Source: a virus. Taken from it: a DNA stretch of 64,000 nucleotides. The notes beneath the pieces are model-generated. The model saw nothing but the letters and a program-made list of their open reading frames with translations. It was not told the DNA's origin and did not search any database. The stretch is taken from positions 1-64,000 of the IMG/VR virus record IMGVR_UViG_3300026484_000382. One strand, written 5' to 3'. A program made the position numbers and the translations under genes. Below are positions 5,116-55,001 of the stretch, one piece after another. How positions within the stretch are numbered: position 1 is the stretch's first letter; every line of letters starts with the position of its first letter.

Positions 5116-5182
5116 TTAAATTTTAAGTTAAAATTAAGAATTAGTTAGATATAATTCTATTGCTATGTATAATTATAGTCTT

Positions 5183-5216
5183 ACAAGTGGTTCACCCCCT
5201 TTCCACTTGTTTTACC
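5183..5216 (+). terminator. Intrinsic terminator after pseudopilin gene
   Basis: A perfect 8-bp stem (5183-5190 ACAAGTGG with 5203-5210 CCACTTGT) encloses a 12-nt C-rich loop and is followed by a short T-run. The rest of the 5116-5351 gap is AT-rich, with a TATAAT at 5286-5291 that may serve the next gene. Confidence 0.6.
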
Positions 5217-5285
5217 TACACTCAAAAAATATCCCCCTTATGTAAAATAAAATAAAAAAACTCTCTATATATAATGTTTTTTTGG

Positions 5286-10088: not shown

Positions 10089-10185
10089 TTGTAGCATTTT
10101 GTTCTACAAAGAACATTTTGTGGAGGGTGGCACACTTGAGACCTACCCACCACCCTCTACAAAGTGTTTAATGTTGGTAGGTCTC
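10089..10185 (+). ncRNA. Structured leader with predicted H-type pseudoknot
   Basis: Stem 1 pairs 10117-10130 with 10150-10163 (14 bp, one G-T wobble). Its loop contains 10138-10147 (GAGACCTACC), perfectly complementary to 10176-10185 (GGTAGGTCTC), giving an A-B-A'-B' order, which is a pseudoknot if both form. A smaller hairpin (10089-10094 with 10104-10109) precedes it. The element ends about 30 nt before the ribosome-binding site of the Rha gene. It could be a translational control leader, a riboswitch-like element or a free RNA such as a type III antitoxin. Alternatively the repeats could act as DNA operators. Confidence 0.55.
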
Positions 10186-13327: not shown

Positions 13328-13812
13328 TGCTAAAAAATAAAATTGTTAAAAAAGGTATGGATGCTTTAAAAGTGGGAACTGTAGTTGTGTTTAGATTACC
13401 TGCTATTACAAATGAAAATCATTTAGGGTATTGGCCCAAAGAAATTGTATCAGATAAAGATATAAAAGAAATAAAAAAATCTGTTGATAAGACAGAACCA
13501 TTAATTGGTGTTATTAGAAGAAGAATTGAAACTGATGACGGAATGACATTTGATGTTGCGTTTTTCACAAGAAGACATGATGGAACTATTTCCGGTTACA
13601 TAGAACTAAAAGAGGTTATGATTTGGAGATACTTTGTTGACCCTTGTAGTTCTGGAATACCACCTAAATGGTTTAAGGAAATTGTTAGAACATCTCAAAA
13701 AGAAGAAGGTTATTTTGTTGAAATTCCTGCCGATAAGATTCATTATCTAAAAGAATGTAAAAAGAAACCGAAATACGCAAAAGTTAAATATATTGTAAAG
13801 GATGAAAAATGA
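13327..13812 (+). CDS. Protein of unknown function
   Basis: 161 residues, AAGGAAAA before the ATG, start overlapping the previous stop. Predicted mostly beta with basic patches, and a Lys-rich C-terminus. No catalytic motif seen. Confidence 0.55.
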   Translation: MLKNKIVKKGMDALKVGTVVVFRLPAITNENHLGYWPKEIVSDKDIKEIKKSVDKTEPLIGVIRRRIETDDGMTFDVAFFTRRHDGTISGYIELKEVMIWRYFVDPCSSGIPPKWFKEIVRTSQKEEGYFVEIPADKIHYLKECKKKPKYAKVKYIVKDEK

Positions 13813-14647: not shown

Positions 14648-15420
14648 TTAGAGAAATAGAATTACTAGGAAACGCAGGAGCATTTGATTTTGATAAGGTG
14701 TCATCAAGTTTCTTAATGAGAAAAGAAAATGATTCCCTTGCACTTATTGATTGTGGACACGGAGTAAATAATGTATTAAAAAAGAGAGGTCTTATAGGGC
14801 AAATCGAGGAAGTTTATATCACTCATACTCATTTTGACCATATAGCTGATTTAGAAGGTTTAATTTATTGTAGATATTTTGTTTACGGTAAAAAAACAAC
14901 TATTAGAACATCAACTACTATTATTGAAGAGTTAAAAAACATATTTGGTAATAGATTTGATACAGAATATTTTAATGGTGAGAATATTCCTGCTCGAATG
15001 GTTGAATATAAAAAAGTAGGAAAGTGTAATGACTATAGACATGGAGATTATGCAGAAGAGTGTTATTTTGATGTAAATCATGGAACTATGAATGCTGTTG
15101 GGTTTAAATTTGTGTCTTATAAACAAGCAGATGGTTATAAAAAAGCAAACAATGTAGTTATAGTATCAGGAGATACAAAAGCTTGTAAAACAATACTTAA
15201 TGAGATTGAAACAATGCCGCAGTGGGTAAATGGTAAATTTATTGTTTTCCACGATTACAGTATGTTTAATAATCCTTGTAAGAATATTCATATGTGCGAG
15301 ATTGATTATGATTTAATGTATGAGAAAGCAGTAGAAGAAGCTAAAGAAAAATGCAAAGATTTTCAACTTTTATTATATCATGATAACTTTAATAATAAAT
15401 TACATAAGGTAGTATTATGA
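14644..15420 (+). CDS. Metallo-beta-lactamase-fold hydrolase
   Basis: 258 residues. The core motif is HTHFDH at residues 61-66 (HxHxDH), preceded by an LALIDCG strand. Later metal-ligand candidates are the Asp in VSGDTKA (~170) and histidines in VFHDY and LYHDN. The SSFLM segment near the N-terminus resembles RNase Z-like phosphodiesterases. Phages encode this fold as the anti-Pycsar enzyme Apyc1, which cleaves cyclic mononucleotides, and the Tad2-like gene lies 2.6 kb upstream, so anti-defence is plausible but unproved. Other options are RNA or nucleotide phosphodiesterases. Confidence 0.8.
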   Translation: MIREIELLGNAGAFDFDKVSSSFLMRKENDSLALIDCGHGVNNVLKKRGLIGQIEEVYITHTHFDHIADLEGLIYCRYFVYGKKTTIRTSTTIIEELKNIFGNRFDTEYFNGENIPARMVEYKKVGKCNDYRHGDYAEECYFDVNHGTMNAVGFKFVSYKQADGYKKANNVVIVSGDTKACKTILNEIETMPQWVNGKFIVFHDYSMFNNPCKNIHMCEIDYDLMYEKAVEEAKEKCKDFQLLLYHDNFNNKLHKVVL

Positions 15421-15872
15421 ATATAGATATAATAAAAATCTTTTTAATAATATTTAGTATTATAATGATACTACTTATTAGTGTATTGATAATGGATGTA
15501 AAAAATTCACCTACTCTTTTAAACTTTTATGTGTTTATGCTGATTTTTTATTCTTATATTCTTGGTAATTTTTTGGGTAAAGATAAAGAGATAGAAACTT
15601 GTTATCGCGAAAAGAAAATGTTACTGGAAAGTGAAATGACTTGTCTTAAGGCCTTTAATAAACGCACAGATAGTTTACTAAAAGACTTGTTGTATGAATA
15701 TAAAGGGAAGAGATATGTTTTACTTGAAAATGTAGAATTTAAACCTACAACAAACGGAAGTAATAGAGATTGGGTTGAAGGTGTAGCTTATGCTCCTATA
15801 GATGACAGTTTTAAAACATATGTAAGAGATAAAGAAGAATTTTTTGATAGATTTAAAAAGGTGGAGCAATAA
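15417..15872 (+). CDS. Membrane-anchored protein with DUF1653-like tail
   Basis: 151 residues. Two N-terminal hydrophobic segments (~3-25 and ~33-50) precede a short coiled region and a small C-terminal domain (~95-151) beginning YKGKRYVLLENVEF and ending TYVRDKEEFFDRFKK. This faintly resembles the DUF1653 pattern. A decayed copy of the last ~16 residues appears at 17281-17340. Overlaps the hydrolase stop by 4 bp. Function unknown. Confidence 0.6.
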   Translation: MNIDIIKIFLIIFSIIMILLISVLIMDVKNSPTLLNFYVFMLIFYSYILGNFLGKDKEIETCYREKKMLLESEMTCLKAFNKRTDSLLKDLLYEYKGKRYVLLENVEFKPTTNGSNRDWVEGVAYAPIDDSFKTYVRDKEEFFDRFKKVEQ

Positions 15873-16047
15873 ATGTTTCCCTTTTTAAGGTTCTATTTTA
15901 CACTTCCAATTAAATTCCCCTAAAAATCTTTTAAACTTCTGAAGTTTTACATTTATTCTTTTACATTGTTTTTTTAGTTTTGGCATGTTTTAGTCCTTTA
16001 TTTTTTTTGAAGTTGGAATTATATCTAAAAAAAATAATATTTTTTTG

Positions 16048-16963: not shown

Positions 16964-17282
16964 ATGAGTAAATAGCACACACAAGAGAATATGGGATGTG
17001 GATAGCAAAAATAATTAGAAGAGATAAAACTTATTTAATTTGTGGTTCTATTAAAAATAGAAGGGCTCATCATATTAATTCTGGTAGTTACCTTCCTGAA
17101 GATAGGTATAGAGAGAAAAATGGTGTGTGTTTATGTGAAAAACATCATAAATTGTTTCATACATCTTACAAGAACTCTTTTAGAGAGAAATGTACAAAAA
17201 AAAAGATTTTAGTAATTTTTTAGAATTTATATTGAAATTTGTTCCTGTTGATGAAGATTGTGGTATTATAACAGCAACTTGA
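16964..17282 (+). pseudogene. Decayed HNH endonuclease gene (paralogue of 17613-17954)
   Basis: Aligned to the intact copy downstream, this copy starts at an ATG (16964) with AAAAGGAACAAAT upstream. It then has a TAG at codon 4 where the intact gene has TGG, and a net two-base gain in a CA repeat near 16976-16983. It next reads openly through REYGMWIAKIIRR, AHHINSGSYL and CEKHHKLFHTSY. A one-base A-run change near 17200 shifts it out of frame, and the residual NFLEFILKF reading ends at 17280-17282. The first zinc cysteine is Tyr (TYLIC versus ECLIC). At least three independent lesions make it non-functional. Confidence 0.7.
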
Positions 17283-17340
17283 CATATATGTAAGAGAGAA
17301 AAAAGAGTTTTTTAGAAAATTTAAACGAATAACCCCTTGA
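17281..17340 (+). pseudogene. Remnant of a second copy of the 15417-15872 gene
   Basis: Reading from 17281 gives IYVREKKEFFRKFKR, which aligns to TYVRDKEEFFDRFKK, the C-terminal end of the protein encoded at 15417-15872. Only this tail is recognisable. It follows the decayed HNH gene directly, as if an HNH insertion disrupted a duplicated gene. The match is short, so it is tentative. Confidence 0.35.
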
Positions 17341-17365
17341 TTTAATTTGAACTATAAGGTATAAT
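17337..17365 (+). promoter_or_regulatory. Sigma70-type promoter TTGATT-17-TATAAT
   Basis: TTGATT at 17337-17342 and TATAAT at 17360-17365 are separated by exactly 17 bases. Unlike other promoter-like sites in the window it has a -35 element. Predicted start is about 17371-17373, the first base of the structured element that follows. Confidence 0.6.
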
Positions 17366-17370
17366 CTCTA

Positions 17371-17530
17371 TCGTCCTGAGAATAGTTAATTTTTACAATT
17401 TTTTTACCTTGTTTGTAATAATTTTTAACTCATATTTCTTGCTATTAAAAGTTTTAATTTTTTTAACAAGGGTATCCCCCTTTGTGTGTTCCTTATAATA
17501 TTTTACATTTTAGTTTCTTCTCAGGACGCA
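17371..17530 (+). ncRNA. Candidate structured RNA with 11-bp closing helix
   Basis: CGTCCTGAGAA (17372-17382) is perfectly complementary to TTCTCAGGACG (17518-17528), bringing together the ends of a ~157-nt non-coding segment that starts just after a good promoter. Inside, CCTTGTT (17407-17413) can pair with AACAAGG (17465-17471). That segment can alternatively form a local hairpin with CCCTTTGT (17478-17485), suggesting a switchable fold. No reading frame of note and no tRNA features. It may be a free small RNA or the leader of the HNH gene at 17613. Confidence 0.5.
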
Positions 17531-17553: not shown

Positions 17554-17584
17554 TAGTATAATGCACTATTAGTGCATTATACTA
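17554..17584. promoter_or_regulatory. 31-bp perfect palindrome before HNH gene
   Basis: TAGTATAATGCAC (17554-17566) and GTGCATTATACTA (17572-17584) form a 13-bp perfect inverted repeat around a 5-bp centre, with a TATAAT in the left arm. It lies 28 bp upstream of the HNH ATG. It could be a repressor operator over a promoter or an RNA hairpin controlling expression. No T-run follows, so it is not a typical terminator. Confidence 0.55.
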
Positions 17585-17612
17585 TCAAACAAAATCAAGA
17601 AAAAGGAATATT

Positions 17613-17954
17613 ATGGCAACATGGCATTCAAGTAGAGAATATAGAATTTGGAGAGCAAAAATAATTAGAACACAAAAAGAATGTTTAATTTGTTCATCTA
17701 TAAAAAAAAGAGCTGCTCATCACATGGATAGTGGTAGTTATTTCCCAGATGAAAGATATAAAATGGATAATGGTGTATGTTTATGCGGAAAACATCACAG
17801 AATGTTTCATAATTCCTACAAAAATAGTTATAGAGAAAAGTGTACAAAAAAAGACTTTGCTAATTTTTTAGAATTAATGATTAAAATTTCAAATGAAACA
17901 GGTTGCTATAATAAAGAAAAAATGATAGAATTCCGTTCAAAAATTTTAAAATAG
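17613..17954 (+). CDS. HNH homing endonuclease-like protein
   Basis: 113 residues. Zinc/HNH module at ~24-70: ECLICSSIKKRAAHH, then DNGVCLCGKHHRMFH. The pattern CxxC ... HH ... CxxHH with the following aromatic is typical of free-standing HNH endonucleases in large phages. AAAAAGGAATATT precedes the ATG. The full-length frame is intact, in contrast to the decayed copy at 16964-17282. Confidence 0.8.
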   Translation: MATWHSSREYRIWRAKIIRTQKECLICSSIKKRAAHHMDSGSYFPDERYKMDNGVCLCGKHHRMFHNSYKNSYREKCTKKDFANFLELMIKISNETGCYNKEKMIEFRSKILK

Positions 17955-17962
17955 GAAAGTAC

Positions 17963-18058
17963 ATGAAAAAGATGCATAAACTAAAAAGAGTTTGTAAAGT
18001 TAAAGTAGAGAAAACAAAAAGGTTTTTAAAGACCTTTAATTGGAAATGTGAATTTTAA
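17963..18058 (+). CDS. Very small basic protein (tentative)
   Basis: 31 residues, MKKMHKLKRVCKVKVEKTKR at its start and ending in KCEF. AGGAAAGTAC precedes the ATG 8 bp after the HNH gene. Net charge is strongly positive. The reading frame includes a hairpin that may be a terminator, so it may not be expressed. Confidence 0.3.
   Translation: MKKMHKLKRVCKVKVEKTKRFLKTFNWKCEF
18018..18042. terminator. Candidate bidirectional terminator between convergent genes
   Basis: AAAGGT (18018-18023) pairs with ACCTTT (18032-18037) around an 8-nt loop, flanked by A-runs on the left. It lies between the plus-strand HNH gene and the minus-strand gene ending at 18055. The stem is short. Confidence 0.35.
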
Positions 18059-18594
18059 TATCCATTTTCCTCTCTGTTTTGTCTAGCTTTGTAAACACCA
18101 TACCCACCTGCTAATGTTAGAGCACCAGCCCCAATACCAGTCTTTATTTTATTCTCTTTCATCCAGTTTAAAACACTATTACCTGATTTAGTTGTAGTAT
18201 CTATATTTGTATTGTATATCTTTTGCTTAAATCTTTTTCTTTCTTCTGCTTTGTTTTTTAATTTTTTGATAGAAATAGGTGTTTCATTGTTAAGGTTAAT
18301 TTCTTGTTGTATATTTTTAACTTCAGGTGTTTCTTTTTGTGATGCCCTATATTGATCTCTTTCTGCTTTAAACTTTGTTTTAGACCCCTGTCCAGAAATA
18401 TGTTTTAACTCTTTATGTTCTTCTGGGGTAATTAAACCATTTGCTAGCATTTCATCTAGCTTTTTGTGTAATTTGTTTTGTTTCCCGTTAAATTCATTAC
18501 TATTAACAAAATCCATTATAAACTTATTATTACCGAATCTATCTTTTATTTTATTATAATAAGCCGTTTTAATTAAGTATTGTGTTGCATTCAT
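18055..18594 (-). CDS. LIKTA-tagged protein with C-terminal glycine-rich membrane segment
   Basis: 179 residues. The N-terminus MNATQYLIKTAYYNK carries the shared motif. The middle is charged and helical. Residues ~150-170 are a hydrophobic glycine-rich segment (GIGAGALTLAGGYGVY) followed by a basic tail. The same layout (motif, charged body, Gly-rich helix, basic end) occurs at 22567-23004 and 59625-60029. AAAAAAAAAGGAAAAAC precedes the ATG on the minus strand, after a TATAAT (complement of 18616-18621). Confidence 0.7.
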   Translation of the reverse strand: MNATQYLIKTAYYNKIKDRFGNNKFIMDFVNSNEFNGKQNKLHKKLDEMLANGLITPEEHKELKHISGQGSKTKFKAERDQYRASQKETPEVKNIQQEINLNNETPISIKKLKNKAEERKRFKQKIYNTNIDTTTKSGNSVLNWMKENKIKTGIGAGALTLAGGYGVYKARQNREENGY

Positions 18595-22540: not shown

Positions 22541-22563
22541 TAAAATTAACAAAAAAAGGATTA
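22541..22563 (+). promoter_or_regulatory. -10-like TAAAAT with A-rich leader
   Basis: TAAAATTAACAAAAAAAGGATT precedes the ATG at 22567 and overlaps the end of the upstream region. One of the recurring motif copies. Confidence 0.45.
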
Positions 22564-22566
22564 ACA

Positions 22567-23004
22567 ATGAGAAGTTTTAATTTAATTAAGACAGCGGCTA
22601 AGAAAAAAGATAATGGACTTAACACAGCTGAAAAAGCTGCTATAGCAAGTGCAGGAGTTGGGGCAGCTGCTTTATCACCTTATGCAGCGAAAAGTGTTAT
22701 GAAAATGTTAGCAGAAAGAAGTGGTAAAAAAGCAGATAAATTATTAGCAAAAGCTGATACTTATAAAAATGCTAACAAATCAGGATGGTTCGGTGGTCTA
22801 AGAGAAGGTCACAAGAAAGAACATGAAGAGTTAATGGAAGTTTATAGAAAACAAGCAGAAGCAGCAAATAGAGCTCAAGGTAGAGCAGATTCTGTTGCAG
22901 GGTTTGTAGACAAACATGGTAAAAAATTAAAATATGCCGCAGGTGCAGGTGCCGCAGGTGCAGGAACTGGTTTAGTATATGGACAAGGACAAAGAAGAAG
23001 TTAA
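22567..23004 (+). CDS. LIKTA-tagged protein with two Gly/Ala-rich segments
   Basis: 145 residues from the ATG at 22567 (AAAAAAAGGATTAACA upstream). An earlier in-frame ATG at 22510 overlaps the previous gene and is unlikely. The N-terminus MRSFNLIKTAAKKK carries the shared motif. Residues ~22-45 are Ala/Gly-rich (AAIASAGVGAAALSPYAA). Residues ~120-140 are a Gly/Ala helix (AAGAGAAGAGTGLVYGQG) followed by a basic end. Likely packaged in the virion, with membrane activity inferred. Confidence 0.7.
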   Translation: MRSFNLIKTAAKKKDNGLNTAEKAAIASAGVGAAALSPYAAKSVMKMLAERSGKKADKLLAKADTYKNANKSGWFGGLREGHKKEHEELMEVYRKQAEAANRAQGRADSVAGFVDKHGKKLKYAAGAGAAGAGTGLVYGQGQRRS

Positions 23005-54055: not shown

Positions 54056-54067
54056 GCTAACCTAAAA

Positions 54068-54095
54068 AAAAGGAGGGTGCTTATACCCCCCTTTT
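54068..54095. terminator. Bidirectional terminator between convergent genes
   Basis: AAAAGGAGGG (54068-54077) pairs with CCCCCCTTTT (54086-54095) with one A-C mismatch around an 8-nt loop. On the plus strand it ends in TTTT. On the minus strand the same stem is followed by a T-run of eight, a good terminator for the leftward operon. Confidence 0.7.
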
Positions 54096-54203
54096 AAGAA
54101 CCATCAAAATAAATAAAACCAACTTAACTACTAATTTAACTGAATCAAGTATAGTTTTTTTTAATATCATGATGGATGCACTAGGCTTACTTACATCAAA
54201 CAT
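54081..54203 (-). CDS. Small membrane protein at end of leftward islet
   Basis: 40 residues, start ATG at 54203 with AAGGAATAAA just upstream on the minus strand. N-terminus MFDVSKPSASIM, then a hydrophobic helix (VKLVVKLVLFILMVL) and a basic end. The stop lies in the terminator hairpin. A 10-bp inverted repeat (54177-54186 with 54257-54266) encloses the start region. Short, so tentative, but the ribosome-binding site and the membrane helix support it. Confidence 0.45.
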   Translation of the reverse strand: MFDVSKPSASIMILKKTILDSVKLVVKLVLFILMVLKRGV

Positions 54204-54266
54204 TTTATTCCTTTATCTTAAATTTCTCTTTTAATATAGAGATTCCTTTGATAAGGGCCTAGTGCA
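54177..54266. repeat. 10-bp inverted repeat around the small leftward gene start
   Basis: TGCACTAGGC (54177-54186) and GCCTAGTGCA (54257-54266) are perfect inverted copies about 70 bp apart, with ATCAAA/TTTGAT further inside (54195-54200 and near 54246). In the leftward transcript this would pair the gene's upstream and early coding regions. It could limit translation of the small membrane protein. Confidence 0.45.
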
Positions 54267-54278
54267 CAAATATATAAC

Positions 54279-55001
54279 TTATTTTGTTTTAATATTTTGA
54301 GTTGAAGAATTGCTTTTAACTAATATTTTAGTGTTTGGCGTAATGTGTTTTGTAGAGTTTGTTTGGTTTATTCTATACATTTCTGAAGTCGATAAAGTTG
54401 TGGGGTTACTAGCTGGTTTCATTCCTGGGGTTATGTTGATAGTTTGTTCAACAATATTATTAGGCTTATTATTACAATCAAATAAATCTTTTTTTGTTTT
54501 TGTTAATTCATTTTGACATTTAGTTAATTGGTCTAGCTCTTTATAACACAAATTACAAACTGTATTTACCCCAAAACTCTGATTTATTTTAATTATTTCA
54601 TTGTCTTCAATCTCATTATAAGAAGCAAAATAAAATCCATATTTTAATTCTGTTAATTGACCTCTTATGTTTTTTGTTATTGACTCCCAGGACAATGAAA
54701 GACCCTCTTCGCTGTTGAAAGCAGAATAAATTATCCTTTTTTTCCCATCTCCATATTTTAAAACAACGGCATCAGTTTTTTCGTCGGAGAATACTATTTG
54801 AATTAAAATATACCCGTTTTTATATGGTGGTTGTATTGTTAGAATAATATAATTATCTCTTTGCAGTGATGGTATAATTTCTGTTCTGTATGTGTTATCA
54901 TCAAAAAAATAAATAGCATTATTTGTTTTGTAAAACTTACTATCTACAATTATTGATTTTTTTTTGTCTATAGGTAAACAAGGAGCAAAAGAAAAACTCA
55001 T
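54279..55001 (-). CDS. Leftward-islet protein of unknown function
   Basis: 240 residues from the ATG at 55001, which overlaps the upstream stop (ATGA). A longer in-frame start at 55034 lacks a ribosome-binding site. Mainly beta-rich for ~170 residues, a CNLCYKEL cysteine pair and coiled segment follow, then a Thr/Asn-rich tail. No recognised domain. Part of the minus-strand islet. Confidence 0.5.
   Translation of the reverse strand: MSFSFAPCLPIDKKKSIIVDSKFYKTNNAIYFFDDNTYRTEIIPSLQRDNYIILTIQPPYKNGYILIQIVFSDEKTDAVVLKYGDGKKRIIYSAFNSEEGLSLSWESITKNIRGQLTELKYGFYFASYNEIEDNEIIKINQSFGVNTVCNLCYKELDQLTKCQNELTKTKKDLFDCNNKPNNIVEQTINITPGMKPASNPTTLSTSEMYRINQTNSTKHITPNTKILVKSNSSTQNIKTK

What the first reader, a model, noticed from the sequence alone, without database searches (positions are those of the whole stretch)
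17337..17530. Candidate small RNA with a sigma70 promoter and an 11-bp closing helix
TTGATT-17-TATAAT is followed about 7 bases later by the first strand of a perfect 11-bp helix whose partner lies 135 nt downstream. An internal segment can pair with either of two partners, suggesting alternative folds. There is no open reading frame and the location beside HNH genes is unusual.
Basis: partly seen in the sequence, partly recalled or inferred. Interest (0 to 1): 0.6.

Follow-up and report, generated by a model that had tools for sequence, protein, structure and literature searches.

The report
Structured leader before phage HNH gene
In an uncultured bacterial virus, a likely promoter starts an RNA whose ends can zip together by an 11-pair helix just before a DNA-cutting (HNH) gene; this is probably an ordinary regulatory leader of that gene, or possibly a small RNA, but no relative was found that could test it.

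Summary
The anatomy is as described: TTGATT-17-TATAAT at 17337-17365, then a perfect 11-bp inverted repeat (17372-17382 / 17518-17528, loop 135 nt), no ORF. The helix beats chance: 0.07 such GC-bearing repeats expected per 64 kb. The promoter is of a kind concentrated in this phage's intergenic + strand, and its start site falls on the helix edge. But only the closing helix is non-random: the interior folds no better than shuffles (z -0.5), the minus strand folds equally well, and the alternative pairing costs about 4 kcal/mol. No Rfam match and no homologue in IMG/VR, INPHARED, PLSDB or GTDB; the one close relative (92% DNA identity) begins 700 bp downstream, so covariation could not be tested.

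No convincing terminator lies between the helix and the intact HNH gene at 17613, and a 14-bp perfect hairpin (17554-17584, with a TATAAT in its arm) stands between them. I therefore read the element as a ~240-nt structured 5' leader of a free-standing HNH endonuclease gene, comparable to the hairpin leaders of T4-type homing endonuclease genes, rather than a ~160-nt small RNA (confidence 0.42 against 0.25). The upstream HNH copy is a pseudogene fused to a gene scar. More striking structured RNAs lie elsewhere in the window (10111-10185; 5178-5262).

The parts
17337..17365 (+). sigma70-type promoter TTGATT-17-TATAAT
   Evidence: 10/12 match; class concentrated in noncoding + strand
17372..17382 (+). 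5' arm of the 11-bp closing helix (P1), CGTCCTGAGAA
17518..17528 (+). 3' arm of P1, TTCTCAGGACG
17383..17517 (+). U-rich P1-enclosed interior, not structured beyond chance
   Evidence: z -0.53, 62 of 200 shuffles fold as well
17407..17413 (+). CCTTGTT, minor alternative partner of AACAAGG
17465..17485 (+). internal hairpin region AACAAGGGTATCCCCCTTTGT; holds the 10-mer TATCCCCCTT (17473) shared only with 5230
17554..17584 (+). perfect 14-bp hairpin TAGTATAATGCACT-ATT-AGTGCATTATACTA with TATAAT (17557-17562) in its 5' arm
   Evidence: longest hairpin with loop <=10 in the 74.7-kb record; none >=12 bp in 12 shuffles
17603..17607 (+). Shine-Dalgarno AAGGA of the HNH gene
17613..17954 (+). intact HNH endonuclease gene, 113 aa
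   Evidence: PHROG 1271 E 3e-7, PHROG 144 E 1e-6; relatives at 42-61% identity
16963..17281 (+). decayed upstream HNH copy: early TAG and frameshifts
   Evidence: 76% identical to copy 2 over 219 nt; Pfam HNH_2 borderline; sequence
17279..17325 (+). scar: degenerate copy of the 3' end of gene 15417-15872
   Evidence: 79% over 47 nt to 15811-15857

Best explanation
The element is the 5' part of a structured untranslated leader of the intact HNH endonuclease gene at 17613. RNA polymerase starts at the 17337-17365 promoter, the first bases made (from about 17370-17373) zip with bases 17518-17528 into an 11-bp helix that encloses a U-rich loop, and transcription runs on through a 14-bp hairpin (17554-17584) and the AAGGA ribosome site into the HNH gene. 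The likely job is to set the level or timing of endonuclease expression (message stability, translation, or a choice between the long transcript and a short one from the TATAAT inside the hairpin), as hairpin leaders do for T4-type homing endonuclease genes. Shown: the sequence features and their rarity. Inferred: transcription, read-through and regulation.
For: Promoter and helix edge coincide. No terminator-like site was found between 17528 and 17613; the only nearby one (17466-17485) is weak and lies inside P1. P1 (0.07 expected per 64 kb) and the 14-bp hairpin (none in 12 shuffles) are both rare and both fall in the 240 nt before this gene. P1 is predicted almost fully paired in the long leader, with the Shine-Dalgarno mostly open. 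The gene is an intact HNH endonuclease by PHROGs. The T4 review PMC2988022 reports RNA hairpins with promoters placed beside them for I-TevI, I-TevII, I-TevIII, segB and mobE, and one non-sequestering hairpin directly upstream of the RBS of seg43(25).
Against: The Shine-Dalgarno is not sequestered in the predicted fold. The five relatives of the HNH gene were not found with such a leader: searching their whole records with the region gave only short AT-rich matches, and no comparable repeat stands before their HNH genes. No transcript data exist. The promoter inside the hairpin has only a 3/6 -35 box. The interior shows no conserved or unusual structure.
Confidence: 0.42

Rival explanations
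1. A separate phage small RNA of about 160-215 nt, closed at its ends by P1, that base-pairs with mRNAs or binds a protein; a second small RNA of the same phage (5178-5262) would share its C-rich word UAUCCCCCUU.
For: Start site at the helix edge; 5' and 3' ends pairing as in stable RNAs; the 10-mer TATCCCCCTT occurs only at 17473 and 5230, both noncoding + strand, and all four + strand CCCCCTT words are noncoding; weak similarity of the two regions, 3 of 300 shuffles as good.
Against: No terminator after P1; no excess complementarity to phage ribosome sites (mean -14.3 against -15.2 kcal/mol for shuffles) and no long antisense match for this RNA; interior not structured; no Rfam match; no homologue.
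Confidence: 0.25
2. The inverted repeat works or arose in DNA: terminal repeats of a small insertion, paired protein-binding sites, or an invertible segment.
For: Both strands fold equally well because only the 11-bp arms are non-random; the locus is a recombination hot spot with a duplicated HNH gene and a gene scar.
Against: No clear target-site duplication (sequence); no second copy of the repeat; no tyrosine or serine recombinase in the phage records held; the promoter-to-helix spacing would be a coincidence.
Confidence: 0.12
3. Neutral intergenic DNA: a chance 11-bp repeat beside a chance or unrelated promoter in decaying sequence left by homing-endonuclease invasion.
For: Genome-wide expectation for such a repeat is 0.07, not vanishingly small; interior z -0.5; region not GC-rich; a pseudogene and a gene scar lie next to it.
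Against: Promoter, helix edge and second rare hairpin all coincide in 240 nt before an intact gene; the 165-nt window from 17367 ranks 8th of 407 windows for fold stability, with two overlapping ones in the top four.
Confidence: 0.21

Closest known systems
Hairpin leaders of T4-type homing endonuclease genes (I-TevI, I-TevII, I-TevIII, segB, Aeh1 mobE; seg43(25) as the non-sequestering case), review PMC2988022
   Same: Phage endonuclease gene with stable RNA structure in its 5' region and a promoter-like sequence inside the hairpin, so that long and short transcripts would differ in structure; as in seg43(25) the hairpin stands before the RBS without covering it.
   Different: RBS is not sequestered; the hairpin base is 18 nt from the Shine-Dalgarno; the extra 157-nt P1 domain has no counterpart described there; no T4 late promoter sequence; nothing mapped.
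6S RNA
   Same: sigma70-type promoter, length near 160-180 nt, ends joined by a closing helix.
   Different: No Rfam 6S match even at E <= 10; interior unstructured, so no central bubble with flanking stems; next to a phage HNH gene.
Group I intron remnant
   Same: HNH genes are often intron-borne in phages.
   Different: No Rfam group I match; lies between genes, not inside a split gene.

Membership tests
T4-type hairpin-regulated homing endonuclease gene | homing-type (HNH or GIY-YIG) endonuclease gene in a phage | tested here: met
   HNH by PHROGs 1271/144; homing activity itself not testable
T4-type hairpin-regulated homing endonuclease gene | stable RNA structure that sequesters the RBS | tested here: not met
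   Shine-Dalgarno unpaired probability 0.73-0.81 in the folded leader
T4-type hairpin-regulated homing endonuclease gene | promoter placed so that its transcript cannot form the structure | tested here: inconclusive
   TATAAT 17557-17562 in the 5' hairpin arm, but its -35 box is only 3/6 (sequence)
phage trans-acting small RNA | own promoter | tested here: met
   (prediction only)
phage trans-acting small RNA | discrete 3' end (intrinsic terminator) | tested here: not met
   only a weak internal terminator-like site 17466-17485; none after P1
phage trans-acting small RNA | seed complementary to target mRNAs beyond chance | tested here: not met
   phage genes only; host unknown
6S RNA (Rfam) | match to the covariance model | tested here: not met
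   no hit at E <= 10
Group I intron (Rfam) | match to the covariance model | tested here: not met
any structured ncRNA family | covarying base pairs in homologues | not testable with these tools
   no homologue found; close relative G001 starts at window 18204 and the identical contig G007 ends at 13564

The most novel reading that the evidence does not exclude
The 17372-17528 RNA and the 5178-5262 RNA are two members of an undescribed class of small RNAs of this phage: each starts at a TATAAT promoter, has a GC-bearing helix at its 5' end and carries the word UAUCCCCCUU; in the 17.4-kb RNA that word can be hidden in a hairpin or freed when AACAAGG pairs upstream, and the 5.2-kb RNA base-pairs with several phage messages.
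Probability: 0.1. Interest if true: 0.55.

Novelty: new member of a known kind. Interest (0 to 1): 0.27.

Why it matters
If it is a leader, it would suggest that structured leaders of endonuclease genes also occur in a phage far from T4; if it is a small RNA, it would be a phage-encoded regulator in an uncultured lineage. Either way it is a modest addition unless transcripts and covariation are shown. The scan around it shows that this phage has several intergenic structured RNAs that deserve more attention than this one.

Tried and rejected
6S RNA, group I intron and every other Rfam family: no match at gathering score, and only chance-level hits to unrelated families at E <= 10. tRNA/tmRNA: none. 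Homology by DNA: phages, distant blastn (only E 0.4 hits) and plasmids (one 30-nt hit in a coding gene). Helix pattern in IMG/VR (none) and in GTDB genomes (one hit, a long GC-rich palindrome at a contig end, chance or assembly artefact). Internal-hairpin pattern in IMG/VR (one hit in GC-rich coding DNA, chance). Neighbouring genes 16074, 14644 and 15417 have no IMG/VR relatives by this search. Invertible promoter: no recombinase found. Decayed copy of the small minus-strand ORF that follows gene 15417-15872: rejected, z 0.15 to 1.3 while the two known copies give 5.4. Hidden minus-strand gene: the 38-codon open stretch on the minus strand has its highest GC at third positions, unlike a gene in a 28% GC genome (counted by hand). 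Antisense to phage ribosome sites: no excess. A first genome-wide fold scan timed out and was repeated with fewer windows.

Full report
What was checked. The window is part of a 74,701-bp IMG/VR virus record, G000, of a 28% GC phage with a sheath-type tail (PHROG 279). Its close relative G001 (IMGVR_UViG_3300026484_000465, 92% DNA identity) begins at window position 18204. A second contig, G007, is 100% identical but ends at window 13564. The finding therefore lies in the one stretch that neither contig covers.

The observation. Promoter, spacing, helix and loop are exactly as reported. Perfect repeats of this length with at least six G/C within 200 nt average 0.07 per shuffled window; two occur. 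The whole domain folds at z -3.9, but the interior alone is at z -0.5 and the reverse strand does the same. The closing helix is thus the whole signal. The alternative pairing exists but loses by about 3.6 kcal/mol in ensemble energy.

Is it transcribed? Promoter-like sites as such are not rare here (44 against 35.5 expected in 5.2 kb). TATAAT with a 17-nt spacer is more telling: four + strand sites in 6.2 kb of noncoding sequence against two in 68.5 kb of coding sequence. Of 36 + strand promoters, three have a start site on the arm of a GC-bearing inverted repeat (17360, 5168 and one inside a gene, 62347). From 36 promoters, six offsets and 17 repeats in 74.7 kb I expect about 0.05; the minus strand has none. 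So a start at 17370-17373 is likely, though unproven.

Where does it end? Between the 3' arm (17528) and the HNH start codon (17613) the scan found no terminator-like site. The region instead holds a perfect 14-bp hairpin, 17554-17584, the longest with a short loop in the record; none of even 12 bp appears in 12 shuffles. It is not followed by a T run. Its 5' arm contains TATAAT. Without a terminator the simplest transcript is the HNH message with a leader of about 240 nt. In the predicted fold P1 is almost fully paired and the Shine-Dalgarno AAGGA mostly free, so simple sequestration is not the mechanism.

The neighbourhood. The downstream HNH gene (17613-17954) is intact and matches HNH PHROGs; relatives at 42-61% identity occur in five other IMG/VR contigs, without a comparable leader repeat. 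The upstream copy is 76% identical over 219 nt but carries a TAG and frameshifts. It runs into a 47-nt degenerate copy of the end of gene 15417-15872. This looks like repeated invasion by a free-standing endonuclease (inference).

Comparison. The T4 review PMC2988022 describes hairpin leaders with nearby promoters for I-TevI, I-TevII, I-TevIII, segB and mobE, and for seg43(25) a stable hairpin that stands before the RBS without covering it. The present layout works most like the last. It is not a member of the RBS-sequestering group, because that feature was tested and not met.

A possible small-RNA class. The word TATCCCCCTT occurs only at 17473 and 5230 on either strand of the record, both noncoding, and all four + strand CCCCCTT words are noncoding. 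The 5178-5262 region has its own promoter and an 8-bp hairpin with a C-rich loop. It has three perfect antisense matches of 13-14 nt in the phage sequence held; no shuffle of 300 has three. The 17.4-kb RNA has none and no excess pairing to phage ribosome sites. I keep this as the novel reading at 0.1. The shared word was noticed after the fact.

Verdict. A real, probably transcribed, modestly structured element whose best reading is a leader of an HNH gene. Covariation could not be tested. Interest is low to moderate.

Noticed in passing
window 10111-10185: Upstream of the Rha-like gene (10226): a 20-bp stem 10111-10130 / 10150-10169 whose loop word GAGACCTACC (10138-10147) is perfectly complementary to GGTAGGTCTC (10176-10185), so a pseudoknot or switch of order A-B-A'-B'. 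Windows here include the most stable against shuffles in the scan.
   Followed up: partly
window 5178-5262: Candidate small RNA: TATAAT promoter, hairpin ACAAGTGG (5183-5190) / CCACTTGT (5203-5210) with a C-rich loop, second word TATCCCCCTT at 5230. Three 13-14-nt perfect antisense matches in phage sequence (5397, 8900 and G007:1155-1168); 0 of 300 shuffles have three.
   Followed up: partly
window 54056-54290: 261 of 261 bases around this intergenic region identical in G001 against 92% overall. The minus strand reads as a 40-codon ORF (MFDVSKPSASIMILKK..., my reading of the sequence) with a Shine-Dalgarno, and a 10-bp helix 54177-54186 / 54257-54266 pairs its leader with early codons.
   Followed up: partly
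window 15888-15986 (-) and 17963-18055 (+): Two related tiny ORFs, MPKLKKQCKRINVKLQKFKRFLGEFNWKCKIEP and MKKMHKLKRVCKVKVEKTKRFLKTFNWKCEF, on opposite strands either side of the HNH copies.
   Followed up: partly
window 64040-64067: Second perfect TATAAT-bearing palindrome directly before a gene (64077); one mismatch in G001.
   Followed up: partly
window 22547-22611 and 63991-64045: A repeat of about 44-66 bp in opposite orientations; at 22547 it spans the gene start encoding MRSFNLIKTA.
   Followed up: no
L006 1240-1330, 2400-2480, 3200-3290, 3838-3890: Repeated intergenic element GAGAAGTTGGCAAACTCCTCTTTCATATATATATACC followed, in several copies, by TTCCG(C)GATATTCGTCCTAAT in another phage contig.
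   Followed up: no
L005 and L007, whole loci: Many copies of the word GTTGGTTCT or its complement, often as inverted pairs.
   Followed up: no
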